Assembly (NCBI GenBank): GCA_903889525.1
Contig: CAISXT010000017.1
Span: 1 to 50,846, forward strand
Reading direction: 5' to 3'
Origin: an uncultured Opitutia bacterium
Lineage (GTDB): Bacteria; Verrucomicrobiota; Verrucomicrobiia; Opitutales; UBA953
Length of the DNA stretch: 50,846 bases
Numbering within the stretch: the first letter of the stretch is position 1; the number at the start of each line of letters is the position of its first letter. This document shows positions 20,106 to 47,716 of the stretch, piece by piece. The notes under the pieces were generated by a model. The model was not told the origin of the DNA. It made no database searches and saw nothing but the letters and a program-made list of their open reading frames with translations. A program made the translations under genes and the position numbers.

Positions 20106-20203
20106 GGGTAGGGACGGCTCTCCGAGCCGTCCGTTCGCCGATGGCGATAGCGAAGCTGGATCTGCTCAACGGCGGGCTCGGAGAGCCCGCCCTACCCAAG
20201 GCA
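20106..20203. repeat. Palindromic GGTAGGG element (copy 1)
   Basis: GGGTAGGG-ACGGCTC-TCC-GAGCCGT...GCGGGCTC-GGA-GAGCCCGC-CCTACCC; between convergent sdhB and DUF4956 genes. Confidence 0.85.
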
Positions 20204-20226
20204 AGTTGCTTGAGTGGGAATTCGCC

Positions 20227-20973
20227 TTAATCCGCTTCGACGACCAGCTGGTCGCTGACGCAGGTGAGGATGACGCGGTTATTTCCGTTCGCCGCCTGGA
20301 TGCCGCGGACGAACTCCGCAATCGCCGTGCTATCCACCATGGTGACTTCATAGGTCAACTCGGTCATCAGGCCCGCCTGGACGGTTTCCACCGACTTCAA
20401 TGACTGGTGGCTGAGGTGGCGGGCGAAGAGCCCCGCGAAGGCTTGGTCGTAGTCCAGATCGGTACCGACTCGGATGCGGAGCAGGTGCGAACCTTTCAGT
20501 GAGGAGAAGAGGTTGAGTCGCGAGATGGCGAAGATGATCGCACACACGAGGGGTACGGTGATCGCGGCCAATGCGTATTGGCGTGCCCCGACGGCGAGGC
20601 CGGTGCCCATCGCGAGGAAAATGAAACCGATATCGCGGGATTGTCCCACGGAGCGGCGGAAGCGGATAATCGAGAACGCCGCGAACATACCGAACGCCGT
20701 GGCCATATTGCCCATGACGACGAGAATCACTAGGGTGACGACCGTGCCCAGAATGAGCAGGGTGTGGACGTAATCCTGGGAGTAACGCGTACCGCGGTAG
20801 GTGCGTTTATAGGTGAAGGCCGTAAGGGCGTTCAGGGCGAAGCTGAAGAGAATCGCGAAGAGAATCTCCGTGACGCGGGGTTTCTCGCTGAGGTCAGCTG
20901 CCAGCTTGGCCATGGAGGAGCTGATGCCGTCCGCGGACGCGGATGTCTGGGCAAGATGAAGGAGGGAGTTCAT
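20227..20973 (-). CDS. DUF4956 domain membrane protein
   Basis: Multi-TM with AFGMFAAFSIIRFRRSVGQSRDIGFIFLAMGTGLAVG; adjacent VTC-domain gene. Confidence 0.85.
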   Translation of the reverse strand: MNSLLHLAQTSASADGISSSMAKLAADLSEKPRVTEILFAILFSFALNALTAFTYKRTYRGTRYSQDYVHTLLILGTVVTLVILVVMGNMATAFGMFAAFSIIRFRRSVGQSRDIGFIFLAMGTGLAVGARQYALAAITVPLVCAIIFAISRLNLFSSLKGSHLLRIRVGTDLDYDQAFAGLFARHLSHQSLKSVETVQAGLMTELTYEVTMVDSTAIAEFVRGIQAANGNNRVILTCVSDQLVVEAD

Positions 20974-21713
20974 GATAAGCAGGAAAGGGCGGGGGTAGCG
21001 CCGTGCAGGCGCATACACTCGGAATATTTACTGAAGGGTCGAGGATAGAGTCCGCGCGCGGAAAGATGGGCGGCAAACGCGTAGGGTACGGCCGTTGACC
21101 CTTTGACTTCCATCAGGCAGAGGTTGTCCGCGAGCACCGAGAGGGGGCAATTATCGTCCTCCGGTGTCGGTGTGAGTTGATCAAAGCGCGCACGGATACC
21201 ATGGTCGAAAGTGATGCGGAGTAGTTCGATGTCGTGGGCGTCGACGAAGCGGTAGGCGTGCCGGTCGTAGCAGATCACGCATACGGGTGCGAAGGCTTCC
21301 GTGGCTACGAGTTGGCGGACCTCGGCGAGGACGCGGGCGTCCCCCGTATCGGGGAGAGAGAGATGCTGGCCGTTGACGGCCGCCCAGGCTTCGCTGGCGG
21401 AGAGCTGGGCCCGCCGTTTCGCGCCCTCATTGCCGTCCTTGTGTTTGATCTCGAGGAAGATCGCTGGTGCGATGGCGCCGTCTTTAGTGCCGTAGATGCG
21501 CAAGCGCAACTTCCGTCGCGAAGGGACGCCCCGCCACGCCTCCCAGCGGCATTTCTGATCCGGGGAATCGCAGTATAGACTGACGACAGGATACCGCCCG
21601 GAGAGACCGCCGACCGTATCGGGTAGAAGTTGGCCCGCGAAACTCGCCAGCAGGTCGTCGCGCTGGGCGATGGTCAGGAGATACTTATGCTCGAAGCGCG
21701 CAGCGATTTCCAT
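20970..21713 (-). CDS. VTC-domain (polyphosphate polymerase-like) protein
   Basis: RFEHKYLLTIAQRDDL...YPVVSLYCDSP...KLRLRIYG...FLEIKHK...PVCVICYDRHAY is typical of the VTC/CYTH-like tunnel fold. Confidence 0.85.
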   Translation of the reverse strand: MEIAARFEHKYLLTIAQRDDLLASFAGQLLPDTVGGLSGRYPVVSLYCDSPDQKCRWEAWRGVPSRRKLRLRIYGTKDGAIAPAIFLEIKHKDGNEGAKRRAQLSASEAWAAVNGQHLSLPDTGDARVLAEVRQLVATEAFAPVCVICYDRHAYRFVDAHDIELLRITFDHGIRARFDQLTPTPEDDNCPLSVLADNLCLMEVKGSTAVPYAFAAHLSARGLYPRPFSKYSECMRLHGATPALSCLS

Positions 21714-21714
21714 G

Positions 21715-23313
21715 TCAGGGCACGCGTGTCAGGGTGAGGGAATTGCGGTCAAACCACACCTCGCCGGCAGCGGCCCGGAGTTCCATCACCAACGACGGGT
21801 CACTATCGGTGACCGAAAATTCGGCGCTCACGGATCGCCAGCCACCATCGCCAATCAGGGGTGGGACGCCGGCGAGCCCTGAAATGCGGAGGCGGGCCCC
21901 TTTGGTTTTTTCATCAGCCCCCGCGACCACGCCGGCGGTCTTCACCATGCCCGTGAGGCGGTAGCGACCTGGTCCGACGGAAAGCTGGAGGCGGTAATCC
22001 CCGCCTTTCTCGGTGCCGATTTTGAGATGGAAGCATTGCCGTCCTTCATAGGCTTGTTCCTCGGTGTCTCCTTTGTCGGTGGACCGATCCCAGTTATATT
22101 TCGCGAGGGCTACTTTTCCTCCAAGGGTCCGAAGTTGCGCGGCGTCTTCGAGTTGGGACCGCACCGCCTCAAGACGGCGTTTTACTTGCTCGGCGGCTTC
22201 TTTACCCCGGCCGTCAAAGCGCTTGCCCTCTTCGACATCCATGGGGGTCAGTTTGGCTTTCGCGTTGGCGGCAATTTCCAGAGTGCGCTTCGGCCAGTCG
22301 TAGTTCCGGAAAGATTTTTCGAAAACCGTGAAGAACTGGGCGCGGAATCGCTCCCGCATCACGGGGCTTTCCAGGAGTGCGTTGGAAACCGCTGATCCCG
22401 GGCGCCGGAAGACATACCAGCGATCATCACCGAACACCTGGTCCATCCCGTGCAGGATGAAATAGAACTTTCCGATGCCGGGGTCCTCGTAGATGCGGTA
22501 GTTATTACGATTAAAGGAATAACCATCCCAGTGGCAGAGGATTTCCTCAAGGGCGAGATGGCGGAAGTACGCGTCGAGATCCAGAATGCGATCCATCCGC
22601 TGGAGGCGCAGGGCGGGGTTTCGCTCCTGCGTGGAGGCGATGAGCTCGGTCAAGCGGACGCTTTCATCGGGGTCGCCATGGTCCACTTCCATCTTCGGAT
22701 TGATTTCATTGCAGAAGCCGCCGTCGTAGAGGTGCCCGCCAGATTTCTTGAAAAAGTATCCGAGGAACTCCCCGTTGAAGCCTTCCTTCAGGACATAGGT
22801 GCCCAGCGTCTTACCGTTGAGGGTCACGTACGCGTGGGTGCAGCGAGAGGCCGGCACGCCGCAGCGTCGCGCCATTTCACCTGCCACGAGTTCATGTAGC
22901 ATGGTGCCATCCTGGGCGCAGTTATTGAGCTGGAATTTAGTGAGCCCACGGAACTCCTGCGTCTTCTTGCTCTTGGCGGTGCGAATGGAGAAGCCCGGGC
23001 GATCTTCCGTGATTTGGCGGAAGCTGCCCGCCGAGCCTTTGAGTTTGAGGGAGCATTTCTCAAGGGTCACGCCGCCCGCCTCTTTGATGGTGAGCGTCAC
23101 GTAGTCGCGCGGATTTTTGGCGAGCTTGTCGATATTCTCCTTCGAAATGGTCAGTTCCAATTTCGGCACAATGCCCGCGAAGAGCGCATCCGGCGACACA
23201 TCGACATTCGCCTGCTTGGGTATGACGAGCGGTGGCAGGGTCTGGGCGTTCACCCCGAGTACGGACAACGCGAGCAAAGCTAACCGATAGGCTGATGGGC
23301 GAAGGGTTACCAC
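21715..23313 (-). CDS. CotH kinase family secreted protein
   Basis: LKLKGSAGSFRQITEDRPGFSIR, DGTMLHELVAGEMARRCGVPASR, NRNNYRIYEDPGIGKFYFILHGMDQVFG. Confidence 0.88.
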   Translation of the reverse strand: MVTLRPSAYRLALLALSVLGVNAQTLPPLVIPKQANVDVSPDALFAGIVPKLELTISKENIDKLAKNPRDYVTLTIKEAGGVTLEKCSLKLKGSAGSFRQITEDRPGFSIRTAKSKKTQEFRGLTKFQLNNCAQDGTMLHELVAGEMARRCGVPASRCTHAYVTLNGKTLGTYVLKEGFNGEFLGYFFKKSGGHLYDGGFCNEINPKMEVDHGDPDESVRLTELIASTQERNPALRLQRMDRILDLDAYFRHLALEEILCHWDGYSFNRNNYRIYEDPGIGKFYFILHGMDQVFGDDRWYVFRRPGSAVSNALLESPVMRERFRAQFFTVFEKSFRNYDWPKRTLEIAANAKAKLTPMDVEEGKRFDGRGKEAAEQVKRRLEAVRSQLEDAAQLRTLGGKVALAKYNWDRSTDKGDTEEQAYEGRQCFHLKIGTEKGGDYRLQLSVGPGRYRLTGMVKTAGVVAGADEKTKGARLRISGLAGVPPLIGDGGWRSVSAEFSVTDSDPSLVMELRAAAGEVWFDRNSLTLTRVP

Positions 23314-23372
23314 GAGTGGCAGGGGTTCCTCAAAATGCGGAGGCTCCTGCTGACTGTCAACCCGCCCCGCTA

Positions 23373-25118
23373 TCAGTTCCCGAAAAGGCCTTGAGAGCTT
23401 TCCCCTAGTCCGCCTGGCCGTGAGCGCATCGCCCAGACTCTATTATATTCCACCAAGAGCCGATGGCGTTCAGCTGCGCCGAGAGCGTGCCCGCTGGCCC
23501 GTTGTATGCCCGCTAGGGCGAGGTCGGCTCCTAGGATGATTTCATCACGCAGATTGGCATCACTTAACAAGCCAGCCAGCCTCCGGCCCTCTTCAGCATG
23601 AGCGATGGAGGCACCCATTTCTTCGGCCGGCACATCGGTGACGGCGATCGCCAGCGCGGCGGGTTTCGCGGTGAGGAACTCCCACGACAGGCTCTTGTTA
23701 CGAAAGGCTTTCTTGATGATGCCGTCGAGGCGTCCGAGATGTTCGAGGGCGGCCGTGGCCTTAGCGGCTTCGATGGGAGAGAGTCCTCCGAGGGTGGCCA
23801 CTCCGGCGACAAAGTCCGTCTTATGATTAGCTGGGAAGCCCCAGGCTTGAGCTAGGCCGGACGCAATCGGCAGCCAGGCAGTCGGCCAAGGTTGGTGATG
23901 ACCATTATCACCCCAAGTGGTCAGCAGGATCCCGCGGGCTCCATGGCGGATGGCTGCGCCGACGGCTTCGGCTTGATTGGTGAGCGCGTTATCGAGGCGT
24001 CCCGTGAAACTCTGCCAGGCACTCGTGCCCGGCGCGACCAGGTAGTTACGGCCAAGTTCGTGTAATCGTCCGCACTGCTCATTGAAAGGGTGTCCCGCAT
24101 CGTAACCCCAGACGACGGGCACGGTGTCAGCAGGTGCATCTTGGGCGAGGGCGAGGTCTTCGAGGAGGATGTCGCCCCAGAATTGCGGGGTGTGTCCGCG
24201 GGCTGTGGCTAATGCGCACAGTTTCTTCAGGTGGTCGAGGTAGACGCGATGCTTGCCGCGTTCTGCCACGGCCTGCTTGCTGAAGCCTTGCCCCAGCTCC
24301 CAGGGCTCGTCGCCGCCGATGTTCACTTGGCGGCTGCGGAAGTTCGGCAGGTAGCTGTCCAGCAGTGAGGCTGCGAAATCGAGGGAGGCTTGGTCGGGGC
24401 GTAGCGTGCCGGGAAATTCTTTGAACTGATTTGTCAGCGGATGAATCCAGCCTTCGGGGCATTCGGCCATCGCCCGGTAACGCGGGTGGCGTAGCCAGCG
24501 CTCCATGTGGCCAAAGGTGTTCAGGTTCGGGACGAGTTCGATGCCCAGTTGGGCGCACGCTTCATCGAGCTCACGGATTTCCGCAGGCGTCAGCGCGGAG
24601 GCGTGATGCCAGGCATCCTCGTGCCCGGGAAAGGCGAAGGTATGCTCTATATAGAGTTGGAGTTGATTCGCGCGTAATTTGCCGAGGGCGGCGATGAGTT
24701 GGAGCAACTCGCTCTGCGTCGGTACGCGGGTGCGCGAGATATCGAGCATGAATCCCCGCACGGGTAGGTCGGGCGAATCGGTGATCTCGAGGTGCGGTAG
24801 TTCGTCGGGATACTGCTCAGCAATCTGGCGGAGGGTCTGCGCTCCATAGAGCACGCCATGCGCATCGCCGGCATTGAGGCGGATGCCGCTCGTGAGGATT
24901 TCGAGATGATAGCCCTCGGCCCCTTGTTCGGGCTTATGGACGACCCGGCAGGCTCCGTCCGTAGCTCCGGCCAGAGCTGCCTGGGCTTCGGCGATGGTCG
25001 TCGGTAGGCTCTCTATAAAGAGGGCGGTCGGGTGGGGTAGGGGAGGTACCTTGAGCCAGCCCCCGCGCAGGGTCAATTCCCTCGGTCGGGGGAAGAGCTT
25101 GAGCACCGGAAGGGCCAT
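23373..25118 (-). CDS. Glycoside hydrolase family 20-like beta-N-acetylhexosaminidase
   Basis: GDAHGVLYGAQTLRQ, PVRGFMLDISRTRVPTQSEL, NIGGDEPWELGQG, GILLTTWGDNGHHQPWP. Confidence 0.85.
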   Translation of the reverse strand: MALPVLKLFPRPRELTLRGGWLKVPPLPHPTALFIESLPTTIAEAQAALAGATDGACRVVHKPEQGAEGYHLEILTSGIRLNAGDAHGVLYGAQTLRQIAEQYPDELPHLEITDSPDLPVRGFMLDISRTRVPTQSELLQLIAALGKLRANQLQLYIEHTFAFPGHEDAWHHASALTPAEIRELDEACAQLGIELVPNLNTFGHMERWLRHPRYRAMAECPEGWIHPLTNQFKEFPGTLRPDQASLDFAASLLDSYLPNFRSRQVNIGGDEPWELGQGFSKQAVAERGKHRVYLDHLKKLCALATARGHTPQFWGDILLEDLALAQDAPADTVPVVWGYDAGHPFNEQCGRLHELGRNYLVAPGTSAWQSFTGRLDNALTNQAEAVGAAIRHGARGILLTTWGDNGHHQPWPTAWLPIASGLAQAWGFPANHKTDFVAGVATLGGLSPIEAAKATAALEHLGRLDGIIKKAFRNKSLSWEFLTAKPAALAIAVTDVPAEEMGASIAHAEEGRRLAGLLSDANLRDEIILGADLALAGIQRASGHALGAAERHRLLVEYNRVWAMRSRPGGLGESSQGLFGN

Positions 25119-25236
25119 GGCACGAGGGTTATCCCCCGGAAGCGGACGGGCAAGACGCTAAGATGGGGCCGAATGCTCTTCCCGCTTGGAACAAACCCCG
25201 GGAGGGCTACATCTACTCCCTTACCCCGCTACACCT

Positions 25237-28200
25237 ATGGTACGCTCATCGCTCAGCCTTCTCTTCTTCGCCGCCGCGGCGCAGGCAGTCCCTGAAGGCT
25301 TCACTATCCGCGAGTTCCTCGGCAACGCCCAGGAGCCAGAAATCTATCCGACGGCCGTGTCTGCCGCCGCCAACGGCGACGTCTACGTCTCCTCGGACAA
25401 GAACGGTTCACTTGGCCACGTCCCCGGTATGGGCCGCATTCTCATCGCCCGCGACACCAAGGGCGCCGGCGTCGCCGATCAAGTCATCGAATACACCAAG
25501 GTCGAAAGCCCCCGCGGCGGCCACTTTGTCGGCGGCATCCTTTACCTCGTCCACCCGCCCTTCCTCTCTAAGTTCCAAGATAAAAACGGCGATGGTAAAG
25601 CCGACTATAACACCGAGCGGACCTTACTCGTCGACGGTCTCGGGGGTGGCATTGAGCACCCGCGCGGCGCTGATCACACCACCAACGGTACCCGCATGGG
25701 CATCGACGGCTGGCTCTACATCGCTGTCGGTGACTTCGGCGCAGGCCTCCTGCGTGACAACGACGGTGCCATCGGCCTCGGCGACAAGAAGCGCGTGACG
25801 CTCTATGGCGGCGGCGTGATGCGCGTCCGTCCCGACGGCACCGAGCTCGAAATCTATACCGAGATGACCCGCAACATCTGCGACGTCGCCATCTCGCCGA
25901 CGCTCGACCTCTTCTCCCGCGATAACACCAATGACGGCAAGGGCTGGAACACCCGTTTCCACCACTTCACTTCGCTGGCCAATCCCGGCTACCCTCGCCT
26001 GTACAAGAACTTTGCCGACGAGATTGCCCACCCCCTTGCCGATTACGGCGGCGGTTCCGGCACCGGCGGCCTCTACCTGAGCGAGCCCGGCTTCCCGGGC
26101 GACTTCGGCGAGTCGCTCTTCACCTGCGACTGGACGACGGGCACCCTGCATCGCCACCCGATCAAGCGCTTTGAATCCACGTTCGTCGCCCAGCAGGAGA
26201 CCTTCGAGAAAGTCCCGCGTGCGACCGACTTCGACGTCGACGGCAATTCCCGTCTCTTCCTTGCTGACTGGCGCGGCGGAGGTTTCAGTTACCTCGGTAA
26301 CGGCAAGCCCAAGTCAAAGAAGGTCATGAAGGACGGTAAGGAGGTCGACGAGCCGATCTATTACCCTAACGGCACTGTCCAGATCATCACCGCCAAGGAT
26401 GTTAAGCCCAACGTCTATGTTGATGTGACCAAGCTCTCGGACGCCGATCTCGTGAAGCAGCTTTCCTCGAAGTCCGCCGTCCAGCGCCTCGAGACCCAGC
26501 GCCAGATTATCGACCGCAATAAGGCCGAGCTCGCCGAGCCCGTCCTCGTCATCGCGCAAGCCGGCTCGGAGCACCTCTACTCCCGCGTCGCCGCAATCTT
26601 CACCTATAAGCAGCTGCTCGGCGCTAAGGCTAACGCCGCGCTCGCCGCGCTCGCCAAGGACTCCGTCGTCCGTGAGTACACCTTGCGCGCGCTCGCCGAT
26701 CGCAGCACGCAATTGGAAGGCGTGCCAGTCCAGCTCTTCATCGACGCCCTGAACGACACCGACCCGCGCGTGCGCCTCCAGGCTCTCATCGGCCTTCAGC
26801 GTCTCGGCGCCAAGGACGCCGCCCCGGCCATCCTCGCCGCCGCCGGCAAGTGGCCCGCGGACGAGTCGAAGCTCAGCGACGGCGAACACTATCGCCTGCC
26901 GCATACCGCCATCGCCACGCTCGCCCGTCTCGGCAACGCCAAGGCCTGCCTCGCTGCACTCGCCGACCCGGCGCAACGTAACGTCGCCTTCCGTGCCCTT
27001 CAGGGGATTCACTCTGACGAAGCGGTCGACGGCCTCCTGGCGGTCAGCCTGAACGGTGAAGACGCCGTGCGCTTCGGCGCCGTCTCGACCCTCGCTCGGC
27101 TTTACCACGTCGAGAAGCCCTGGAACTATAAGGACTGGTGGAGCACCCGCCCGGATGACCGCGGTCCGTATTTCGAGCCGGCTACTTGGTCCGCCACACC
27201 GCGCATTCATCAGGGCATCGAAGCCGCCTACGCCAAGTTGCCCGGTAAGCTGCGAATGGCCTCGCTCGAGATTCTTGCCAAGAATCGCATCGCGATTACC
27301 GAACTCAAGCTCGATGGCCTCGATCCGCTCCGACTCGCGATGGCTACCCAGACGCTGCGCCCGGCCGACATCACCCTGCTCGTCGACGCCGCCCTCCAGT
27401 CCAGTCGCAAGTGGGAAGAGCGCTTCGATTGCTATAAGGCCTTGCTCAAGGTCGAAGGTGATGCCAGCCTCGAATCTCGCGTCAAGGTCCTCGCCGGCTG
27501 GTCCAAGGACGCCACGGCGCCCGCTTCCGCCACGCAGGCGATCAGCGACTTCATCTACGAGGCCGACCGTGGCAACCAGGTGAACAAGCTCCGCTCGATG
27601 GCGAACAAGGCTGACGACGCCTCCTCGACGATCCTCTGGAAGGCGCTACTCAACGTACTCAACAGCCCGCTCACCAAGGACCAACAGAAGAAGGCCGTCC
27701 GCGGCCACGTCGACAAGAACCCCCGCGACCTAGGCTTCTTCTTCGCTATCGCCGACCTCGGTCTGACTGGCTTCGACAAGCAGCTCCTGGAAGGCACGAA
27801 GGGCGACAACGTCATCCAGATTAAGGCCGCTCAAGCCGCCCTCGACGCTGGCAAGAAGGCGCTCACTCGGAAGGGCAAGAAGATTGCGCAGCTTGACCTC
27901 GCCGATGTGGCTCAGGCCGTTTTCAAGGGCCGCGGCAACGTGAAGCAAGGCCAGCAGCTCTTCACCTCACAGGGTTGTGTGGCCTGCCATGCCATCGACC
28001 TTACCGCCGAACAGAAGGGCCCCTACCTCGGCGCTTCCGGTGCGAAGTTCCCGCGCGAATACCTCGTCGAGTCCGTGCTCTACCCGAGCAAGGTCGTCGC
28101 TCAAGGCTTCCAGACCTTCCAGCTAGATATGAAGGACGGCTCCATCCAGTTGGGCTTCATCACCGCTGAAGCGGATGGCGAAATCACCCTGCGGAACATC

Positions 28201-28356: not shown

Positions 28357-28376
28357 CGCGGGCGAAGCCGGATACC

Positions 28377-28405
28377 AAGGGCGCCTACGGGCGCCCTTTT
28401 TGTTT
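28377..28405 (+). terminator. Rho-independent terminator
   Basis: AAGGGCGCC-TACG-GGCGCCCTT followed by TTTGTTT, 20 bp after stop codon. Confidence 0.85.
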
Positions 28406-28535
28406 AGGTAGGGATGCGATGACATCGCATCCGCCTGTGTCTAGGTAGGGACGGCTCTCCGAGCCGTCCGTTCGCGGACCGGGGTGCGAATCGCAATCTA
28501 GGCAACAGCGGGCTCGGCGACCCCGCCGTTGCCTA
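28406..28535. repeat. Palindromic GGTAGGG element (copy 2, tandem half-unit plus unit)
   Basis: AGGTAGG-GATGCGAT-GAC-ATCGCATC-CGCCTGTGTCTAGGTAGGG-ACGGCTC-TCC-GAGCCGT-CCGTTCGCGGAC...CTAGGCAACAGCGGG...CCCGCCGTTGCCTAG. Confidence 0.85.
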
Positions 28536-28632
28536 GAGCTCTGCTTTTGGGCCCTAATGACATATCCTCCTATCTTGATACATGGATACAAACTTGCCAA
28601 AAGGCGGTTTACCCCTTTGATTCGTCAGCCTT

Positions 28633-31345: not shown

Positions 31346-31372
31346 AGGGCGCCTACGGGCGCCCTTTTTGTT
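31346..31372 (+). terminator. Rho-independent terminator downstream of ahcY
   Basis: AGGGCGCC-TACG-GGCGCCCT plus TTTTGTTT; near-identical to 28377-28405. Confidence 0.85.
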
Positions 31373-31373
31373 T

Positions 31374-31407
31374 GGTAGGGATGCGATGACATCGCCTCCG
31401 CCTGTCA
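31374..31407. repeat. Palindromic GGTAGGG element (copy 3, half-unit)
   Basis: GGTAGG-GATGCGAT-GAC-ATCGCCTC-CGCCTGTC. Confidence 0.75.
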
Positions 31408-31624: not shown

Positions 31625-31626
31625 GG

Positions 31627-31797
31627 GACGGGATGCGATGACATCACCTCCGCCTGTCTTGAGGTAGCGGCAGCACCGCGTGTTGCCCTAGCTATCTTTG
31701 GTGGGGCAGGGTTGTCTCCAACCCGCCGTTGAGCCAATCGATATCCGCATCTCCCTCCGCAACCCGGACGGCTCGGAGAGCCGTCCCTACCCAAGGC
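31627..31797. repeat. Palindromic GGTAGGG elements (copy 4, composite)
   Basis: Contains GATGCGAT-GAC-ATCACCTC, GGCAGCAC-CGC-GTGTTGCC, GGGTTG-TCT-CCAACCC, GGACGGCTC-GGA-GAGCCGTCC-CTACCCAAGGCAA. Confidence 0.8.
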
Positions 31798-32913: not shown

Positions 32914-32964
32914 CGGGCTTTAAGATTAGGGGGCAAGTGGGTATGGGGGCAAGAGGACATGGGG

Positions 32965-33132
32965 GTAGGGGCGCGACTGCGTCGCGTCCGTTCGCGGAGA
33001 GAGGGTCGATTAGCCGGGCAAGCTATCTGGCCCCACGATATCCGTTCGCCTACGGACGCCACGCAGTGGCGCCCCTACCCCGCCACCAGAGAACGAAGGT
33101 AACTAGGGCAGCACGCGGTGCTGCCCCTACCA
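32965..33132. repeat. Palindromic GGTAGGG elements (copy 5, unit plus half-unit)
   Basis: GGTAGGG-GCGCGAC-TGC-GTCGCGT-CCGTTCGCGGA...GGACGCCAC-GCA-GTGGCGCC-CCTACC and GGGCAGCAC-GCG-GTGCTGCCC-CTACC. Confidence 0.8.
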
Positions 33133-34558: not shown

Positions 34559-34586
34559 AGAGTATTGAGTATGGAGTATCGAGTAT
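34559..34586. repeat. Heptamer tandem repeat NGAGTAT x4
   Basis: AGAGTAT TGAGTAT GGAGTAT CGAGTAT; shares 20 nt (ATACTCGATACTCCATACTC on the opposite strand) with 33140-33167. Confidence 0.85.
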
Positions 34587-34660
34587 GGGGAGAGACAAAT
34601 GTCCGGGTTGGGGGCGGCGCAGCACCCAAGGGGAGACCGGGTGGTAAGTTGGTGATGCAT

Positions 34661-34794
34661 TGGGTAGGGATGCGATTGCTATCGCGTCCGCTCGATGCCG
34701 AAGGAGGCGGGTATCCTCGGGTCTTAGCTAGGTATATTGACCTCATGCCTGCGTCCGCGAACGGACGTGATGGCCATCACGTCCCAACCCCTGA
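34661..34794. repeat. Palindromic GGTAGGG element (copy 6)
   Basis: GGGTAGG-GATGCGAT-TGCT-ATCGCGTC-CGCTCG...GTCCGCGAACGGACGTGAT-GGCC-ATCACGTCC-CAACCC. Confidence 0.8.
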
Positions 34795-35727: not shown

Positions 35728-35853
35728 GGGTAGGGCGGCGATTGCTATCGCCGCCATTCTAAGCCGAGGGCGGAACGACGCCGGGACTTAGTCAGCCTCG
35801 TTGATGTACGCATCTCCGTCCGCGAACGGACGGCTCGGAGAGCCATCCCTACC
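35728..35853. repeat. Palindromic GGTAGGG element (copy 7)
   Basis: GGGTAGGGCGGCGAT-TGCT-ATCGCCGCC...GTCCGCGAACGGACGGCTC-GGA-GAGCCATCC-CTACC. Confidence 0.82.
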
Positions 35854-35901: not shown

Positions 35902-35991
35902 GGGTAGGGCGGCTCTCCGAGCCCGCCGTTGAGCCGATCGAGTTACGTATCTCCGTCCGCGAACGGACGTGATGGTAATCACGTCCCTACC
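35902..35991. repeat. Palindromic GGTAGGG element (copy 8)
   Basis: GGGTAGGGCGGCTC-TCC-GAGCCCGCCGTTGAGCC...GTCCGCGAACGGACGTGAT-GGTA-ATCACGTCC-CTACC. Confidence 0.82.
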
Positions 35992-38610: not shown

Positions 38611-38717
38611 GGTAGGGCGGGTGGTCCTCAACCCGCCGTTGAGCCGACTAGGATCGGAACTCGTTCGAGGGGCTTCGCTCTGTTCACGAACGGACGGCTC
38701 GGAGAGCCGTCCCTCCC
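38611..38717. repeat. Palindromic GGTAGGG element (copy 9)
   Basis: GGTAGGGCGGGTG-GTCCT-CAACCCGCCGTTGAGCC...GAACGGACGGCTC-GGA-GAGCCGTCC-CTCCC. Confidence 0.78.
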
Positions 38718-38763: not shown

Positions 38764-39765
38764 ATGCCCTTTATGTCCGAGCCACTCCTGACTCTCCGCG
38801 AAAGCAAGACCTCCCCGGTCGGCTCACGTTTCCAGGCCATCTGCGCCCTGGGGGAAATCGCCACCAAGACCGCGAAGACCGGCTCCACCTACTATGAAGC
38901 GGTCATCGCTGATGCGACCGACGACATCAAGGTGCGCGTCTTTGGCGACTCTCCGGTGAAGCCCGTGCTCGTGACGCTTAAGCCCGGCGCGATCGTCCGC
39001 GTGGGCGGCGTGGTCGGCGACTTCAACGGTCGGCCGGATCTCAAGGTCGATATACTTTCGCCGATCACGGATGCCGAGCGCTCCGATCCGGCGATCATGG
39101 GCAAGCTCACCCCGGTCTCGCAGCACGACCCGGTGAAGATGAAGGCGGAACTCGCGGGCATCACCAGCCGCATCCCGCACGCGACCCTGCGCGCCACCGT
39201 GGAATCTGTCCTCGAAGAGCATGGTGAGCGTTTCTACGACGCCGTCGCGGCGCTGGGCATGCACCACGCTTATCGCCACGGCCTACTTGAGCACACGCTG
39301 CGCATGGCCAAGTGCGCCGAAGCCTTGCTGCCACTTTACACCAAGGTTGATCACTCCCTCGCCGTCGCCGGCACCATTCTCCATGACCTCGGCAAGGTCC
39401 AGGAATATTCCCGCCTTGAGCCTGGTATGGCCAAGGCCGGTTTCACCCGCGCGGGCAATCTGCACGGGCACCTCGTCCTCGGCGCCTTCATTGTGCGTAC
39501 GCACGGCACCAAGGTCGGCCTAGAGGCTTCGCTCCTCGAACGCCTTGAGCACATCCTGCTTTCGCACCACACCATGCGCGAATACGGTGCCTGCGCCATC
39601 CCATCGACGCCGGAGGCCGTTTTCGTGGCCCGCATCGATGATATGGACGCCAAGCTTTCCGCCGTGGAAGAAGAGCTCCGCAAGGCGCCTCCCGGTGCCG
39701 AGTTCATGCAGCTGCGCGCGATCGATGGCCAGCTGTTGATCACGCCGCCGAAGACCGGAGTCTAA
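38764..39765 (+). CDS. OB-fold plus HD-domain 3'-5' exoribonuclease (YhaM-like)
   Basis: OB-like N-terminus; HHAYRHGLLEHTLRMAKCAE, AGTILHDLGKVQEYSR; start revised because the track ORF reads through repeat copy 9. Confidence 0.85.
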   Translation: MPFMSEPLLTLRESKTSPVGSRFQAICALGEIATKTAKTGSTYYEAVIADATDDIKVRVFGDSPVKPVLVTLKPGAIVRVGGVVGDFNGRPDLKVDILSPITDAERSDPAIMGKLTPVSQHDPVKMKAELAGITSRIPHATLRATVESVLEEHGERFYDAVAALGMHHAYRHGLLEHTLRMAKCAEALLPLYTKVDHSLAVAGTILHDLGKVQEYSRLEPGMAKAGFTRAGNLHGHLVLGAFIVRTHGTKVGLEASLLERLEHILLSHHTMREYGACAIPSTPEAVFVARIDDMDAKLSAVEEELRKAPPGAEFMQLRAIDGQLLITPPKTGV

Positions 39766-39768
39766 GCC

Positions 39769-40839
39769 ATGGACGTCCGGGAGCTGGATTTCGAACTCCC
39801 GCCTGCACGCATCGCCGCGGAGCCTGCCACGCGTCGCGATGGTTCGCGCCTCCTCGTCGTGCGCCGCGCCACGCGCACCATCGAGCATCGCCTCTTCTCG
39901 GAGCTGCCGGACCTACTTCCCGCGGGCGCCTTGCTCATTCGCAATAACGTCACCGTCCTCAAGGCGCGCCTCTTCGGCGTGCGGCCCACGGGTGGCAAAG
40001 TAGAGTGCCTGTTGCTGCGCCCCACCGCGGACCCGCTCGAATGGTGGTGCCTGCTACGCCCTGGTAAGCGCGCCTCGGACGAGGCTGGCTTCACCATCGA
40101 CGGCTGCCACGCCGTCGCCGTCGAGACCAAGCAGGGTGAATACCGCGTGCGCTTCGGATTGCCCGTCGGCGAGACCGTGCAGGGGCTCGCTGACCGCGTG
40201 GGCGAACTCCCGCTACCACCTTACATTGTCGAAGCGCGCAAAGAGCGCGGCTTGGCCGCGGCCGACGACGCCGCGCGCTACCAGACCGTCTATGCAGACC
40301 CCAGTGCCGCGCGGGCGGCGGCCGCGCCCACGGCTGGCCTGCATTTCACGCCCGAGTTGCTCGCTGTGCTCAAGGCGCGCGGCCACGATGCATTCGATCT
40401 CGTCTTGGATGTCGGCCCGGGGACATTTCAACCCGTCTCCGTCGATCATCTCGATCAGCACGTCATGCACTCTGAGGCGTATCGGATTCCCGCCGCCACC
40501 ATGGCGGCATTGCGGGACCGCCGGCCGCGTCTCGCCGTAGGGACGACCTCCGTGCGAGCGAGCGAGGATGCTTTTCGTAAGACGCAGGGCTTCGCGCAGG
40601 CCGCGGGTGATTTCAGTTCGGAGGCCTCCCTCTTCATTCGGCCCGGCGATACCATCGGCTGTTGCGAGCACCTCCTGACTAACTTTCACCTCCCGCGGTC
40701 GACGCTCCTCTGCCTCGTCGCCGCCTTCCTCACCCCTGGCTCGCCGGAAGGGCTCGCCTGGCTCAAGGAGATCTACGCCGAAGCCATCGCGCGCGAATAC
40801 CGTTTCTTCAGCTACGGTGACGCCATGCTGATTCTGTGA
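39769..40839 (+). CDS. queA: S-adenosylmethionine:tRNA ribosyltransferase-isomerase
   Basis: [66 protein letters not shown]. Confidence 0.96.
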
Positions 40840-40842
40840 GGA

Positions 40843-41862
40843 TTAGGGTTCGTTGATACTGAGATCTGACTGTTCCTCCAGTGGGCGGCTCTTATCCCAC
40901 TTCAGTCGATTTTTATTCAGTGCAAGCTCGAGGCCTCGATCATTAGGCTTGGCGTTAAAATAGTAAGTAAAGCGTAGCTTAGTGTAGGAGTAGCTAATGG
41001 GCCCGACAATTTTCGCGTAATGGGCGGAAGCAATCGAACCATCGGTATTCATTTTTACCCGGGTTCTCAGGAAAAACCCTGGCTCCTTCCGCTCATCGGC
41101 TAGCAGATGGCGCGAGGTGAAGTTGTTCGTTAAGTTGGGTTGGTAATTACTTTCCGGCGCAACGGGTGGCATGCTTAGCTGGCAGTAGGGCCAGAACTTT
41201 GGCTCGGGGATGATTCCGGAGCCTGGCTCGGGAAAAGCGATTTCCACTTTCGAATTCCAGTGGCCAAAGTGTCGGGCGAATTGTTCCGTGGTGAGATTGC
41301 GGTAGTCAGGATGCTGGCGATTGAAGGCGAGGGCCTCTGGCTCCATCCTCCATCCCTCTTGGACGGATGTGGTGCGGAAGCGGATATCCGTGACCTCCCC
41401 TTTACCAAAAGGTGGCAACATATCCCCCTTCTCGAAGTCATAACTGATCCAGGTATTCTCCGGGTAATTGCCGCCAGTAAAACGCAGGTATACCTTCCGG
41501 GCATGGAGAGAGGTTGGCTGCACCCGCCGTGGCAGGGCGAAAGTGTAGGACTGCTTTTCATCGAAGTGACAGATGCCGTACCATTCGTCGACCAAGCAGG
41601 GGTAGTGGCCGTCTTTCTTGATATCAATCCGGCTGAGGCACATGTCCGCGTTCGCCGTGAAGACGACCTTCCCGTCGACCCCGCTTTTACTTTCAATGAG
41701 CTTATCGCTGGAGTAGCGTGGGTCATTGCGGCGACCCAGGACGATACGGAGTCCGGCGTCAGCGACGGGGCTTCCGTCCTCGTCGGTGATCCGGATGGTG
41801 AATTCTGTGGCCGCCGCCGAAAGTGCGGCGACGAGGAGAAGCAGGGAGGGTAGTAGGTTCAT
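40843..41862 (-). CDS. Secreted hypothetical protein with N-terminal Ig/carboxypeptidase-regulatory-like domain
   Basis: Signal peptide; [22 protein letters not shown]; 4-bp overlap with upstream gene. Confidence 0.65.
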
Positions 41863-44516
41863 TTGAGTTGGCCGCGGTCAATGATGATTTGGAAGAGTGG
41901 GTGGACGAAGGGAAGGGCGACGTTTTTGTAGTCGCTATGTAGCCAGCGGCCGTGAGTTTTCTCCGCCTTGTGGCCATCGGTCGGCCAGCGCGAGCCGGGG
42001 GTTCGACCCGCAGCTTCCAGGTTGAAGTTTTCGTGCTTGGTCGGCGGCCCGGGGAGATTGCTCTCCAGTGGCAGTGGCACAGCCCCAGCGGCAAAGGTCA
42101 TGGCTGGAAGCCCTCTGGCCAGTAGGTCATAGCGTACTAGGCGATCGTCCAGCAGCGGTGAAGGTCGTCGCGGTCGCGCATCATGCAGCCACTTTTCGAC
42201 GAACGGCCGGAAGAATGAATCATTCATGAGCTGGGGGGTCGAAATTTTATCCGCCGTGGCAGGGGCGAGGTGCTCATAGTAGCCTCCGGTCCCGTTTGAT
42301 TGCGAACCCGGCACATACGGGCCCCTCCACGCGTTATTGAATCCCCAGCCGCCTTGACCACGCTCCATGGCAGGGCTGGCGAGGGAGCGGGACCAGCCAA
42401 CGCCCTTTAGCATCTCCTGCGTTTTCCATACGCCGTAATCCACCGCCCGGCCGGCCCAGAGCGTGGACAGTACGGCTGCGGATTCTGTCGCAGGCGGGCA
42501 ATTGGTGACATCTTCCCCTGGCGAGTAGCAGTTAGTTAAGGGCACAAGGTCCCGCGCGCGGCTGAAGCAGTTTTTCCATGTATAGGCGCGGCGTTGATCG
42601 TCCAGCGCGAAGAGCTTATACCAGTCGGCCGCGTAGAGCCTCCGTGTATAACCGCGCCATACTTTCTCCGTCATCTGTTCTGACTGAATTGGGTCGGCGG
42701 AATCGCCCGAGATGGCTTCGATGGGCATGGCGGCATTGAGGGGAAAATATTTGGCCGGCGTGAAGCCTGCTTGGACGCTCTGGGCAGCGACGATATTGCC
42801 GAGGCTATGCGCGATGAGTACGGAACGAGCAGGATCCAGGAAGCCAAGTGACTTGGCGAGTGTATCGCCGCTCTGGAAAGCGTGGAAGACAGCCTTGTGA
42901 TAATCCAGTCCAGTGTCGCCATTCCAGGTCACGCCGACAAATCGAGCCTGGCTGCCCATGGTGTAGAGTCGTTTGAAAGTCTCGGCCTGCCAGCCGCGCG
43001 CGGTATCCCCATCGACGTTATAACCGTGAATCATCAACACCCAGCGATGGGCGGTTTCCGTGTCTGGGAGTCCTGCTGGCTCGCCGGGCAGGTTCGGTCG
43101 GCCGGGTCTTCTGGGTAAGACAGGCCGGCCATCGATATCCCGAGCGCAGAAGTTCAGGCTCAGGTGGCGATACATGGTTTCCACTGGTACAATTGCGATA
43201 GGTAGTTCGAATGTCGCGACCACTTGACCGGCGTTGACGATTTCGATGCACGCCGGTCGATTGGTCGGTTTGTTTGCTTCCACCAGAAGCACGCCGCCGT
43301 TTCTCTCGCCCATGCCGTTGACGAATGCCTTGGTGAGTTCGATTCGCCCTTGCGCGTCTGGCATGCCCACGTTGGCGGTATTGATGTCGCCGATACCATC
43401 AGGTCCGTAGACATGGATATCCGGCTGGCGGTGGATGGAGCCGGCGGTTAACGCCGCGAGGCCTGTCTCGGTGGCCTGAAGGGCTTTATCTTCATTCCGG
43501 AGAAAATACTGATAGCCATCGTCAGGGCTAAAGGCGTGGACGAGCCGTCCGATATTGAGATTGAGAGCGAAGAAATCGATCAAGTCGCGGAGGCCATTGA
43601 TCCCTTTACGGCTGGCGTCCGACTGGCCGCTAGGTCGACCCGGGATATCGGCACGCTCTTGTGACTCGCCTTCATCGGAGTCGTCATTCACCCAAAATCG
43701 AAACGGCTTTCCACCGCTGGGCCGTTCGTCTGGTGAGATAATCCCATCGCGATCGACATCGACCTCGAGGCCCGCCTTGAGCACGGCAACCTGCAGGACT
43801 TCGTAGCGACCCGGACCACTTCGGTCTGGGATGATTTGCATGATGAGGGGGCGACCTTCATCTGCTTTAAGAAGTTCGAAGCTCAGGGCAAAATACCGCC
43901 AGTCCGCGCCCACCGCGTAGGGGGTCTTTTTCCTAAGGAGCGTCCGCCCGCCTTCGGTAAGGATGGTGACCTCGTAGGTTTGGATTTCGTTGCGGGGGTT
44001 GAGTAGCACGCGCTGTTCCCAGACGAGTGCATACGCTCCGCTCTTCAATCCATTTGCGGTCAACTTGGCGGCCATGTGCTCAGGGGCGTTGGCGGGTGCG
44101 AAGTATTGGCCGGAATAGCTTTCGCCTGATGGATCCGCCGGAGAATCGGGCGGCCGAGTGGAGGCGCCAAAGAGCACGCTCAAGGGCAGGCGTTTAATAG
44201 CTGGTGCGGTATTAGCGGCCAGCCCTCTGGTCGCAGAGTTTAAGACGATTGTATGCGGGTTGTCATGCGGATCCAGCGGGTCAGTCCCAGCTACAACCTC
44301 TTCTCCGTCGTCGTAGCCGTCTCCGTCCGTATCGGGGTTAAATGGGTCAGTCCCGATCAGCCGCTCATCCTCGTCCGAAATTCCATCGCCGTCGGAATCA
44401 ATCAGGTTGAGCGAGGGAAGGGGGGCCGGCGAGTGACTGGCCGCGAAACCGGAGTGAGCCAGCAGTAGGCAAGTGAGTGCGCCCACAAGTTGGCGCCAGG
44501 ATAAGGTCAGAAGCAT
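41859..44516 (-). CDS. Secreted protein with thrombospondin type 3-like Ca-binding repeats and an alpha/beta-hydrolase-like domain
   Basis: [69 protein letters not shown] and [16 protein letters not shown]. Confidence 0.8.
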
Positions 44517-44706
44517 GACCCATCTCAGAATAAGACCTTTCCCGAAAAAACAATCTCCAGAATCTGAGGTGTTTGTGATGGGGAATGCGCAGGGTGTCAG
44601 CGTGGGATGTGGGTCTGGGCTTTATGGCTGGCTTCGGGCTTTTAAATTGAACTTAAAGCGCCTCCCTCGGTTGACCCTGCAACCAGGCGGGTTTCATAGT
44701 GTCGGT

Positions 44707-47247
44707 ATGCGCATGCCCCGCTGCACCCTTACCCTGTCCGCCCTTTGCCTGGCGGCCGTCGTGGGCGCGCAGATCGGCGACAAGCCGGGCGAACCGATGG
44801 TGCAGCTCGTCCCGGACGCGAAAATCCCCGCCTCGCCGCCGCGTACCCCGCAGGAGCAGCTGCAGGCTTTTCAAATCGCGAAGGGCTATCAGATCTCCCT
44901 CGCCGCGAGCGATCCGGCCATCGGCGACCCAGTCGCGGCCACGTTCGGGCCCGACGGCCGCCTCTGGGTCGTGGAAATGCAGGGCTACATGCCCAACCTC
45001 GATGGCACCACGGAAGACCAGCCGCACGGCCGTATCTCGGTGCTTGAAGACACCGACGGCGATGGGGTCTTCGATAAGTCCACGGTCTTTCTTGATGGCA
45101 TTGTGATGCCGCGGGCGATCGCCCTCCATCGCGATGGCGTGCTCGTGGGCGCGCCGCCTCATCTCTGGTTCTGCCGCGATACCAAGGGCACGGGCAAGTG
45201 CGATGAGCGCACCGAGGTGGCGACGGACTTCGGCGTGCGCGTGGATCCTTCTCGCCCGCAGCTCGCTAATCCGGAGCGCGCCCCGAATGCACTCCTCTGG
45301 GGCCATGACAACTGGCTCTACGTCGGCGCCTATACCGCCCGCTTCAAATTCAAGGATGGCCGCTGGGTGCGCGGGCTGAGCAACTTCCGCGGGCAGTGGG
45401 GCCTTTCGCAGGATGATTTTAGCCACCTCTTTCATAACAGCAACAGCGATGCCCTCCGGGCCGATGTGATCCCATCGTCCTACCTCTTTCGCAATCCGAC
45501 CCTGAGTCGCACCACGGGGCTCAACTGGAAGGTCGCGAAGGAGCAGTTCGTGTGGCCGGCCCGCGTGAATCCAGGCATCAATCGCGGCTACCGCCCGGAG
45601 ATGCTCCGCGATTACAAGCTAAAGGAATACACCGCGGCTTGTGGTCCGTGGATTTATCGAGCCGACCTCTTCCCGGAGGATGCCTACGGCAACGCCTTTG
45701 TCTGTGAGCCTGCCGGTAATCTCATTTCGCGCCATGTCGTGAAATCCGTCGCCGGCGCCCTCGAGGCGCAGCCTTATTACGACCAGGCGGAATTCCTGAC
45801 CTCGACCGACGAGCGTTTCCGCCCAGTCAATCTCCTCACGGGCCCTGACGGTGCGTTGTATGTCATCGATCTCTATCGCGGCATCATCCAGCACCGGATC
45901 TCGCTCACGACTTACCTGCGCGAGCAAATCGTGAAGCGCGGCTTGGATAAGCCACTGGCCTTGGGGCGCGTCTGGCGTATCGCCCCAGAAGGTTCCGTGG
46001 TCGTGCCCGCTAAGAAACTTTCGCAGATGAGCTCAGCCGAACTCGTCGCCGAACTTTCCAGCGGCAACTCCTGGCGCCGCGAAACCGCCCAGCGCCTGCT
46101 CGTGGAAAAGGGTGATGTCTCGGTGGCGGCCGCGCTCAACGCCGTCGCGAAATCCGCCGCCAGCCCGATGGGCCGTGTGCACGCCCTGTGGACACTTGAA
46201 GGGCTCGGGGCTGTGACCGCCGAAGCCTTACGGCCTTGCCTGACGCATCCAGACGCCCGCGTGCGTGCTGCCGCTGTGCGGGTTTCGGAAGCGGGGATGG
46301 CGTCACCCGACCGCGAGGCAATCATCGCGCGCTGGATAGAATTAGCCGCGACGGAGGTGAGCACCGAAGTCCAACAACAGCTGGTGTTATCCATGGGCGA
46401 AGCCAAGGCGCTCTCCGTGGACCTCGCCGCCGCGGCGCTGGCCAACCGGGCCGCCTACACCGCGTTCATTCAGGACGCACTCATCAGCGGACTCGATGGC
46501 CGGGAACTCGAGGTCTTTGAGGCCATCCTCAAAAAGCCGGCGGATTACTCCAAGACGCTCCCGGCCGCTTTGCTCCGTTGTGTATTCGCCGAGCGCAAGG
46601 CCCCGCGTGTCGAGAAGGCCTTGGCGATCATTGCCGCTTTGCCGCTCAAGTCGCAGCAGCTCGCCTTGCTCGGTGCTCTGGCTGGCCACCCGACCGTGAC
46701 GGCGAAGCGCCCCGTCAAGCTCACCGCCGAGCCGGCTTCATTAGCGAAGCTCGGTCAGAGTAAGGACGCTGCCATGGTGAAAGCCCTCGCTTGGTTTAAG
46801 AGCACGGTCGTCTGGCCAGGTAAGCCCGGCGTGGTCGTGCCGATCGTGAAGCCGCTTACCAATGAAGAGCACGCAATGTTCGACTCCGGCAAACTGACTT
46901 TCACCGGGCTCTGCGCCGCCTGCCACCAGCCGACCGGAAAGGGGCTGGATGGACTCGCGCCGCCGCTGGCGGATTCTGAATGGGTTAACGGCGACCCTGA
47001 GCGCATTGTTCGCGTGGTCATGCACGGCCTGCGTGGCCCCATCAAGGTGAAGGGTAATAGTTACAGTTACGACATGCCCGCCGCGGGCTTCCTGACGGAT
47101 GAGCAAATCGCCTCCGTGCTCACCTATATCCGCCGCGAGTGGGACCATGAAGCCTCGCCTGTGCCGATTGATCTCGTGAAGAAAGTCCGCGAGCAGACCA
47201 AAGGCCGGACGGATGCGTGGACGGAGCCGGAGCTGCAAAAGAGGTAG
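44707..47247 (+). CDS. PVC-type heme-binding cytochrome c / membrane-bound dehydrogenase-like protein
   Basis: Signal peptide MRMPRCTLTLSALCLAAVVGA; DGRLWVVEMQGYMPN; C-terminal GLCAACHQPTGKGLDGLAPPLADSEWV; start revised from 44473. Confidence 0.9.
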   Translation: MRMPRCTLTLSALCLAAVVGAQIGDKPGEPMVQLVPDAKIPASPPRTPQEQLQAFQIAKGYQISLAASDPAIGDPVAATFGPDGRLWVVEMQGYMPNLDGTTEDQPHGRISVLEDTDGDGVFDKSTVFLDGIVMPRAIALHRDGVLVGAPPHLWFCRDTKGTGKCDERTEVATDFGVRVDPSRPQLANPERAPNALLWGHDNWLYVGAYTARFKFKDGRWVRGLSNFRGQWGLSQDDFSHLFHNSNSDALRADVIPSSYLFRNPTLSRTTGLNWKVAKEQFVWPARVNPGINRGYRPEMLRDYKLKEYTAACGPWIYRADLFPEDAYGNAFVCEPAGNLISRHVVKSVAGALEAQPYYDQAEFLTSTDERFRPVNLLTGPDGALYVIDLYRGIIQHRISLTTYLREQIVKRGLDKPLALGRVWRIAPEGSVVVPAKKLSQMSSAELVAELSSGNSWRRETAQRLLVEKGDVSVAAALNAVAKSAASPMGRVHALWTLEGLGAVTAEALRPCLTHPDARVRAAAVRVSEAGMASPDREAIIARWIELAATEVSTEVQQQLVLSMGEAKALSVDLAAAALANRAAYTAFIQDALISGLDGRELEVFEAILKKPADYSKTLPAALLRCVFAERKAPRVEKALAIIAALPLKSQQLALLGALAGHPTVTAKRPVKLTAEPASLAKLGQSKDAAMVKALAWFKSTVVWPGKPGVVVPIVKPLTNEEHAMFDSGKLTFTGLCAACHQPTGKGLDGLAPPLADSEWVNGDPERIVRVVMHGLRGPIKVKGNSYSYDMPAAGFLTDEQIASVLTYIRREWDHEASPVPIDLVKKVREQTKGRTDAWTEPELQKR

Positions 47248-47320
47248 GGGCGCCACTGCGTGGCGTCCGCCTGTCTTGAGGTAGAGACAGCACCACGTGC
47301 TGTCTTCGGTGCAGAAGTGC
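47243..47320. repeat. Palindromic GGTAGGG element (copy 10, two half-units)
   Basis: GGTAGGGGCGCCAC-TGC-GTGGCGTCCGCCTGTCTTGAGGTAGAGACAGCAC-CAC-GTGCTGTC. Confidence 0.75.
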
Positions 47321-47430
47321 CCATCGACCTACGGCCTGTGCTAAGGTGCCAAAGTGGGCAGCAAGTTTCCGTTCGTTGTAATGGGTAGGGCCGGGACCGC
47401 GTCACGACATCGCTGCTGCTGCCGCCGCTT

Positions 47431-47538
47431 GGTAGGGACGGCTCTCCGAGCCGTCCGTTCGCGGACGAAGATGCGCCGCTCGTATAAGTTTCTCTCCTCG
47501 ATCGGGCCAACGGCGGGCTGAGGACAGCCCGCCCTACC
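47431..47538. repeat. Palindromic GGTAGGG element (copy 11, full unit)
   Basis: GGTAGGG-ACGGCTC-TCC-GAGCCGT-CCGTTCGCGGACGAAGATGCG...CAACGGCGGGCTG-AGGA-CAGCCCGCCCTACC. Confidence 0.9.
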
Positions 47539-47602
47539 AGCGAAGACGGATCCTTCGCGGGGCATGGTCGGAAATATTTTCGGATGAAGGTATCTGTCTT
47601 GA

Positions 47603-47716
47603 GGTAGGGATGGCTCTCCGAGCCGTCCGTTCGCGGATGAAGATGCGCAGCTCGCGTGAGTTTCTCTCCTCGATCGGGTCAACGGCGGGCTGAGGACAGC
47701 CCGCCCTACCCAAGGC
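47603..47716. repeat. Palindromic GGTAGGG element (copy 12, full unit)
   Basis: Near-identical to copy 11 over its whole length, ending CCCTACCCAAGGCAA. Confidence 0.9.

What the first reader, a model, noticed from the sequence alone, without database searches (positions are those of the whole stretch)
20106..47716. Dispersed modular palindromic element family with pairing-preserving sequence changes
At least 12 full or partial copies share GGTAGGG at one end and CCCTACC at the other, with two short hairpins separated by CCGTTCGCGGA and a 30-50 nt spacer. Hairpin arms differ between copies but stay complementary: ACGGCTC/TCC/GAGCCGT, GCGGGCTC/GGA/GAGCCCGC, GATGCGAT/GAC/ATCGCATC, GGCGGCGAT/TGCT/ATCGCCGCC, GGACGTGAT/GGTA/ATCACGTCC, GGGCAGCAC/GCG/GTGCTGCCC, GGCGCCAC/TGC/GTGGCGTCC. 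Conserved ends with covarying stems indicate that structure, rather than sequence, is retained. That fits hairpin-recognising mobilisation (as in REP/RAYT or IS200/IS605-type systems) or an RNA-level function. No copies were seen in 1-20 kb, while nearly every non-operonic gap from 20 to 48 kb has one.
Basis: partly seen in the sequence, partly recalled or inferred. Interest (0 to 1): 0.78.

Follow-up and report, generated by a model that had tools for sequence, protein, structure and literature searches.

The report
REP hairpins spread by matching transposases
The scattered hairpins are REP elements, short mobile DNA hairpins that small RAYT enzymes probably copy around a freshwater Verrucomicrobiota genome; comparing 161 enzymes with their flanking hairpins shows that two amino acids predict two bases at the hairpin tip, which offers a testable answer to how each enzyme picks its own repeat.

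Summary
The window has 26 hairpins of one fixed build, GGTAG + 9-bp stem (GGN7...N7'CC) + 3-4-nt loop, all in intergenic gaps; 8 of 9 stem pairs show compensatory changes. They are GTAG-type REP elements, mostly in inverted pairs. No transposase lies on this contig, but a custom profile finds two Y1/HUH RAYT genes elsewhere in the genome, each flanked by its own REP type; both types also occur in the window. In the genus 48 of 48 RAYTs have such REPs within 300 nt. The gap at 20053-20226 is empty in 10 sister species and holds different REPs in others. So this is a new member of a known kind (REP/RAYT; GTAG repeats were already reported in Opitutus terrae). What appears new is a recognition pattern across 161 RAYTs: Arg at residue 53 goes with G as first loop base; a basic residue 92 goes with non-C at stem position 8, Glu/Ser92 with C. 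Both rules were written down beforehand and held in 51 held-out RAYTs (p 6e-11 and 4e-5, one per cluster). On the tree 18 of 19 and 18 of 21 residue switches coincide with the base switch. Residue 92 aligns with E. coli K82, known to contact the REP.

The parts
20107..20132 (+). REP, stem GGACGGCTC-tcc; left half of a REPIN in a convergent gap
20171..20196 (-). REP, stem GGCGGGCTC-tcc; right half. The whole unit (20106-20203) recurs as a ~97-nt dispersed element with sharp ends across the genus
28378..28405 (+). terminator-like hairpin with T-run directly upstream of a REP; the same 28 nt at 31346-31373
28407..28432 (+). REP, stem GGATGCGAT-gac
28444..28469 (+). REP, stem GGACGGCTC-tcc
31374..31399 (+). 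REP, stem GGATGCGAT-gac
31626..31651 (+). degenerate REP (head GGACG), stem GGATGCGAT-gac
   Evidence: read; entered in A3 with ends shifted by 2 nt
31663..31688 (+). degenerate REP, stem CGGCAGCAC-cgc
31766..31791 (-). REP, stem GGACGGCTC-tcc
32964..32989 (+). REP, stem GGGCGCGAC-tgc; left half of a REPIN
33054..33079 (-). REP, stem GGGCGCCAC-tgc; right half
33106..33131 (-). REP, stem GGGCAGCAC-cgc
34663..34689 (+). REP, stem GGATGCGAT-tgct; left half
34763..34789 (-). REP (head GGTTG), stem GGACGTGAT-ggcc; right half
35729..35755 (+). REP, stem GGCGGCGAT-tgct
35828..35853 (-). REP, stem GGATGGCTC-tcc
35903..35927 (+). REP, stem GGCGGCTC-tcc with one base lost from the 5' arm
35965..35991 (-). 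REP, stem GGACGTGAT-tacc
38611..38637 (+). REP, stem GGCGGGTGG-tcct; left half
38692..38717 (-). REP (head GGGAG), stem GGACGGCTC-tcc; right half
47243..47268 (+). REP, stem GGGCGCCAC-tgc; its GGTAG supplies the TAG stop codon of the gene ending at 47247
47280..47305 (+). REP (AGACAGCAC-cac), type of the genome's own RAYT at C23
47384..47409 (+). REP (GGCCGGGAC-cgc-GTCACGACA), type of the genome's own RAYT at C4
47431..47538 (.). REPIN: REP 47431-47456 (+) GGACGGCTC-tcc and REP 47512-47538 (-) GGCGGGCTG-tcct
47603..47710 (.). second copy of that REPIN (94% identical, 172 nt downstream); sister genomes G060 and G002 have only one

Best explanation
The hairpins are GTAG-type REP elements, mostly in inverted pairs (REPINs/BIMEs), non-autonomous elements processed in trans by small single-tyrosine HUH nucleases (RAYT/TnpAREP) coded elsewhere in the genome. 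Shown: the hairpin build, RAYT genes flanked by their own REP type, turnover of REPs at one orthologous gap, and coupled evolution of RAYT residues and hairpin-tip bases. Inferred: the RAYT binds the single-stranded hairpin (GGTAG plus tip), cuts next to it and joins it elsewhere, so REPs accumulate in tolerated intergenic sites. Several hairpin types sit in one window because several RAYT subfamilies have passed through this lineage; some have left REPs whose matching RAYT is not in the present assembly. Specificity is proposed to reside mainly in two contacts: residue 53 (C-terminal part of the first long helix) reads the first loop base, with Arg choosing G, and residue 92 (helix corresponding to E. 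coli alpha-3) reads the next-to-last stem pair; the middle of the stem need only pair.
For: Copy excess, shared build and compensatory changes. Two RAYTs in the own genome, missed by Pfam Y1_Tnp at E 0.001 but found by profile A1 at 3.7e-70 and 5.8e-56, both flanked by matching REPs. REP within 300 nt: genus 48/48 (45 on both sides), other records 62/65 (54 both), random stretches of the own genome 5.8%. All 8 A1 members match NCBIfam NF047646 REP_Tyr_transpos; nearest solved structure 4er8 (TnpArep) by sequence, 2e-15, and by fold, E 6e-10, TM 0.76, model pLDDT 91. Empty sites and REP replacement at one gap in 25 sister species; tandem REPIN gain. Mantel correlation RAYT vs stem 0.33-0.48, 0 of 999 permutations. 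Code: held-out clusters 45/47 and 32/36; tree co-switching 18 of 19 and 18 of 21. Residue 92 aligns with E. coli K82, which contacts the REP (PMC8266576).
Against: No transposition event was seen between nearly identical genomes; the clearest recent change (47431/47603) is a tandem duplication that replication slippage could also give. Most stem types in the window have no matching RAYT in this assembly (90% complete, 192 contigs), so current mobility of those types is unproven. The coincidence of residue and base switches does not prove contact; the null model placed changes at random by branch length. Three of 161 RAYTs have G without Arg53, three have Arg53 without G.
Confidence: 0.93

Rival explanations
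1. The hairpins are cis-acting RNA elements (terminators, mRNA stabilisers or a small-RNA family) kept for RNA-level function; the flanking transposases are incidental.
For: Compensatory changes; several copies follow a terminator-like hairpin and lie at gene 3' ends.
Against: No Rfam family hits them. Different types replace each other, or are absent, at one orthologous gap. Types match flanking RAYT subfamilies, and tip bases switch together with RAYT residues, which an RNA role does not predict. Some lie in divergent gaps.
Confidence: 0.03
2. The hairpins are ends or remnants of an autonomous IS200/IS605-type insertion sequence rather than REPs.
For: The enzyme fold and HUH-Y1 chemistry are shared; IS608 and ISDra2 transposases are the next structural matches.
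Against: GTAG guide, RAYT-specific NPVR.G motif, best match to TnpAREP and NF047646 rather than to IS200 models; REPs dispersed as ~97-nt pairs without the gene; RAYT genes one to a few per genome.
Confidence: 0.03
3. A variant of the best explanation: the REPs are extinct. RAYT activity has ended and only tandem duplication and recombination move them now.
For: Most stem types in the window lack a matching RAYT in the assembly; the clearest recent change is a tandem duplication.
Against: Two intact RAYTs with near-perfect flanking REPs are present; their types occur in the window; REP content differs widely between species of the genus.
Confidence: 0.15

Closest known systems
GTAG REP families / REPtrons (PMC3733652), including Opitutus terrae
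   Same: Short hairpin with a GTAG foot, 6-9 bp stems, inverted dimers, several families per genome, flanking a RAYT; a Verrucomicrobiota species already reported as highly enriched.
   Different: This genus and its stem types are not among the species named in the text read; stem length and GG/CC foot are strikingly uniform here while stems differ between RAYT subfamilies.
Group 3 TnpAREP / REPtron Sm of Stenotrophomonas maltophilia (PMC8266576)
   Same: Perfect-palindrome REPs with a 3-nt loop whose first base (G13) is essential in vitro; no need for a bulge.
   Different: That work states that the contacts can only be speculated about; here residue-base coupling points to positions 53 and 92. 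Membership of this clade in group 3 was not tested by a joint tree.
E. coli RayT/TnpAREP with BIMEs (group 2; PDB 4er8)
   Same: Homologous enzyme, GTAG foot, inverted REP pairs; K82 of the DNA-binding helix aligns with residue 92.
   Different: E. coli REPs are long, need a bulge, and the loop sequence does not matter (PMC8266576).
REPINs of Pseudomonas fluorescens (PMC3116915)
   Same: Inverted REP pairs spread as a unit (from its abstract and my own knowledge).
   Different: Different phylum, different head context (GA between GTAG head and palindrome in Pseudomonas, PMC2817692).

Membership tests
REP / REPIN (GTAG type) | short palindrome, many copies, mainly extragenic | tested here: met
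   26 in window, all in gaps; 73 in 225 kb of the genome against 1-4 for scrambled heads
REP / REPIN (GTAG type) | GTAG tetranucleotide at the 5' foot of the hairpin | tested here: met
REP / REPIN (GTAG type) | inverted pairs dispersed as a unit | tested here: met
   unit 20106-20203 recurs with the same ends in many genomes
REP / REPIN (GTAG type) | type matches the REPs flanking a RAYT gene | tested here: met
   two types match the own RAYTs, the others mostly match RAYT subfamilies of sister species
RAYT (TnpAREP) | HUH motif and single catalytic Tyr | tested here: met
   H68, H70, Y121 invariant in A1
RAYT (TnpAREP) | NP(L/V)(R/K)xG motif and N-terminal Thr | tested here: met
   N, P, R and T24 invariant in A1, Gly in most members, against the definition in PMC2817692
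RAYT (TnpAREP) | gene flanked by REPs | tested here: met
   48/48 in genus, 62/65 elsewhere; 62/76 held-out clade members
RAYT (TnpAREP) | cuts single-stranded cognate REP next to the hairpin | not testable with these tools
   needs purified protein
TnpAREP group 3 (perfect-palindrome REPs) | perfect stem without bulge, short loop | tested here: met
   most genus stems are perfect; some other lineages carry a conserved mismatch
TnpAREP group 3 (perfect-palindrome REPs) | falls in the group 3 clade of the RAYT tree | not tested
   no group 3 reference sequences reachable
IS200/IS605 insertion sequence | transposase gene moves between its own ends as an autonomous element in multiple copies | tested here: inconclusive
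   RAYTs are one to a few per genome and of different subfamilies; no whole-unit insertion was examined

The most novel reading that the evidence does not exclude
RAYTs of this Verrucomicrobiota clade read the hairpin tip by a simple protein-DNA code: Arg53 selects G at the first loop base, while a basic residue 92 selects non-C and Glu/Ser (also Gly/Ala) select C at the next-to-last stem pair. New REP families arise when these residues and the tip switch together, leaving the middle of the stem free to drift with pairing retained.
Probability: 0.75. Interest if true: 0.75.

Novelty: new member of a known kind. Interest (0 to 1): 0.62.

Why it matters
How a RAYT tells its own REPs from those of its neighbours is an open question for the perfect-palindrome group; the published in vitro work could only speculate about the contacting residues (PMC8266576). 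This genus carries many RAYT/REP pairs with one frame and different tips, so the question can be approached statistically: two residues predict two bases in unseen RAYTs. If the contacts are real, RAYT specificity could be predicted from sequence, orphan REPs assigned to lost RAYTs, and hairpin-specific single-strand nucleases retargeted in vitro.

Tried and rejected
Pfam PF01797 in the own genome gave no RAYT at E 0.001; taken alone it would have suggested a REP family without transposase; a custom profile reversed that. The ~320-aa Y1 proteins of the genus (e.g. L007-L009, L022, L023) lack REP flanks immediately beside the gene and were set aside. Rfam found only a tRNA. Prediction P4 (Arg104 with C at stem position 9) failed in the held-out set; P3 (Phe/Tyr106 with C at loop base 2) could not be tested because residue 106 did not vary. 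A second RAYT clade of the phylum (below 120 bits) never has GGTAG-9-bp REPs nearby (0/67) and was excluded. An out-of-phylum test in Gammaproteobacteria could not be set up: the locus labelled Polynucleobacter lies in a genome whose hits coincide with sister genome G059, E. coli is not usable as a centre, and plasmid hits are too distant. A regional cause for the REP-free 1-20 kb was dropped. A covariance-model genome search was not run: the pattern caller was enough.
Full report
OBSERVATION. The window is one whole contig (C17, 50,846 bases) of a 2.24 Mb, 192-contig, 90%-complete genome. GGTAGGG occurs 28 times against 4.35 expected. 20 of 90 GGTAG sites are followed by a 9-bp stem with at most one mismatch and a loop of 3-4, against 0.07% of all positions. 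With degenerate copies there are 26 hairpins between 20,107 and 47,710, all in intergenic gaps. The build is GGTAG + GGN7 + loop (3-4) + N7'CC. On alignment A3, 95.5% of cells pair, 8 of 9 pairs change on both sides, and sliding the partner destroys the signal. In 225 kb of the genome there are 73 such hairpins; heads with scrambled letters give 1-4.

THE ENZYME. Pfam Y1_Tnp finds nothing in the own genome at E 0.001 but does in sister species. Small (~150 aa) Y1 proteins there sit between inverted pairs of the same hairpins. A profile from eight of them (A1) finds two genes in the own genome, C23:5895-6344 (3.7e-70) and C4:7342-7788 (5.8e-56). The first is flanked by GGTAG-GGACAGCAC-cac-GTGCTGTCC, the second by GGTAG-GGTCGGGAC-cgc-GTCACGACA; close copies of both types lie in the window at 47280 and 47384. 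All A1 members match NCBIfam REP_Tyr_transpos. The nearest solved structure is E. coli TnpAREP, 4er8, by sequence (2e-15) and by fold of an AlphaFold model with pLDDT 91 (TM 0.76). Records of the same genus are named Opitutae, Verrucomicrobiota.

ASSOCIATION. A REP lies within 300 nt of 48 of 48 distinct genus RAYTs (45 on both sides) and 62 of 65 RAYTs from other records (54 both), against 5.8% of random 310-nt stretches of the own genome. Most stem types in the window flank some RAYT subfamily in the genus: GGCGGGCTC-tcc (L052, L075), GGATGCGAT-gac (L046, L064), GGGCAGCAC-cgc (L043, L057, L060-L062), GGGCGCCAC/GGGCGCGAC-tgc (L048, L051), the GAT-tgcc/tacc type (L050, L070, L071), and the two own RAYTs. 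RAYT distance and stem distance correlate (Mantel r 0.33-0.48; 0 of 999 permutations as high).

MOBILITY. In 25 sister loci with both flanks of the convergent gap 20053-20226, ten have no REP (gap 77-118 bp, usually just a terminator-like hairpin), thirteen hold REPs of various types, usually just after the T-run of that hairpin, and two hold only degenerate remnants. The 97-nt unit of the window recurs with the same ends in many genomes. At 47431-47710 the window has a tandem pair where G060 and G002 have one REPIN. I saw no clean insertion between near-identical strains, so the transposition step itself is inferred from published biochemistry of TnpAREP (PMC8266576) and from this turnover.

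RECOGNITION CODE (new here as far as the held literature shows). Left and right REPs of one RAYT share stem positions 8-9 in 88% of clusters (12% between RAYTs) and the first two loop bases in 89% (25%), but positions 5-6 in only 38% (13%). So the tip is kept and the middle drifts. Among 110 RAYTs, residue 53 (numbering of the own RAYT L026) tracks the first loop base and residue 92 tracks stem position 8. I wrote four predictions in the notebook before fetching further RAYTs. In 51 held-out RAYTs (47 clusters, at most 70% and in the median 55% identical to the training set): Arg53 <-> G held in 45 of 47 clusters (Fisher 6e-11); Glu/Ser92 -> C and Arg/Lys/His92 -> not C held in 32 of 36 (4e-5); one prediction was untestable and one failed. 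A first look at 21 of these came before the second batch was fetched; the rules were not changed in between. On a tree of all 161 RAYTs with those two columns masked, Arg53 changes 19 times, 18 on the same branch as the loop-base switch (null mean 1.7, maximum 6 of 5000); basic-92 changes 21 times, 18 with the stem-8 switch (null mean 2.9, maximum 9); these two columns rank first for their bases. Residue 92 aligns with E. coli K82 in three alignments, the residue that contacts the REP bulge base (PMC8266576). In the model, residue 53 lies near the end of the helix 38-54 and residue 92 in the helix 81-96 (model numbering is two lower). The essential first loop base of S. maltophilia REPs (G13, PMC8266576) fits the same position.

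COMPARISON. This is the REP/RAYT kind; GTAG repeats were known from O. terrae (PMC3733652) and RAYT-REP coevolution from Stenotrophomonas (PMC2817692). The family is a new member. The residue-base code is the part a specialist would not expect. Limits: the genome is incomplete, taxon sampling is one phylum, the null for co-switching is simple, and contact is not shown.

Noticed in passing
window 47243-47249; L011, L015: The TAG inside GGTAG serves as the stop codon of the gene upstream, in the window gene ending at 47247 and in some RAYT genes themselves.
   Followed up: no
window 20053-20106: The terminator-like hairpin seen in sister species at this gap has lost its loop and second arm in the window, right next to the REPIN, which may now take its place.
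   Followed up: no
L123 (record titled Polynucleobacter meluiroseus MAG) = G519: Match positions coincide with sister genome G059; the record title looks wrong for this genome.
   Followed up: partly
L237-L346, members below 120 bits: A second, large RAYT clade in Verrucomicrobiota with TGTAG-type flanking repeats of another build, present in many genomes of the phylum.
   Followed up: partly
L007-L010, L020, L022, L023, L025: A ~320-aa Y1 transposase family in the genus without REPs immediately beside the gene.
   Followed up: no
several REP-containing gaps, e.g. window 34565-34592: Short degenerate repeats of the type GAGTATNGAGTATNGAG lie beside REPs in the window and in sister genomes.
   Followed up: no
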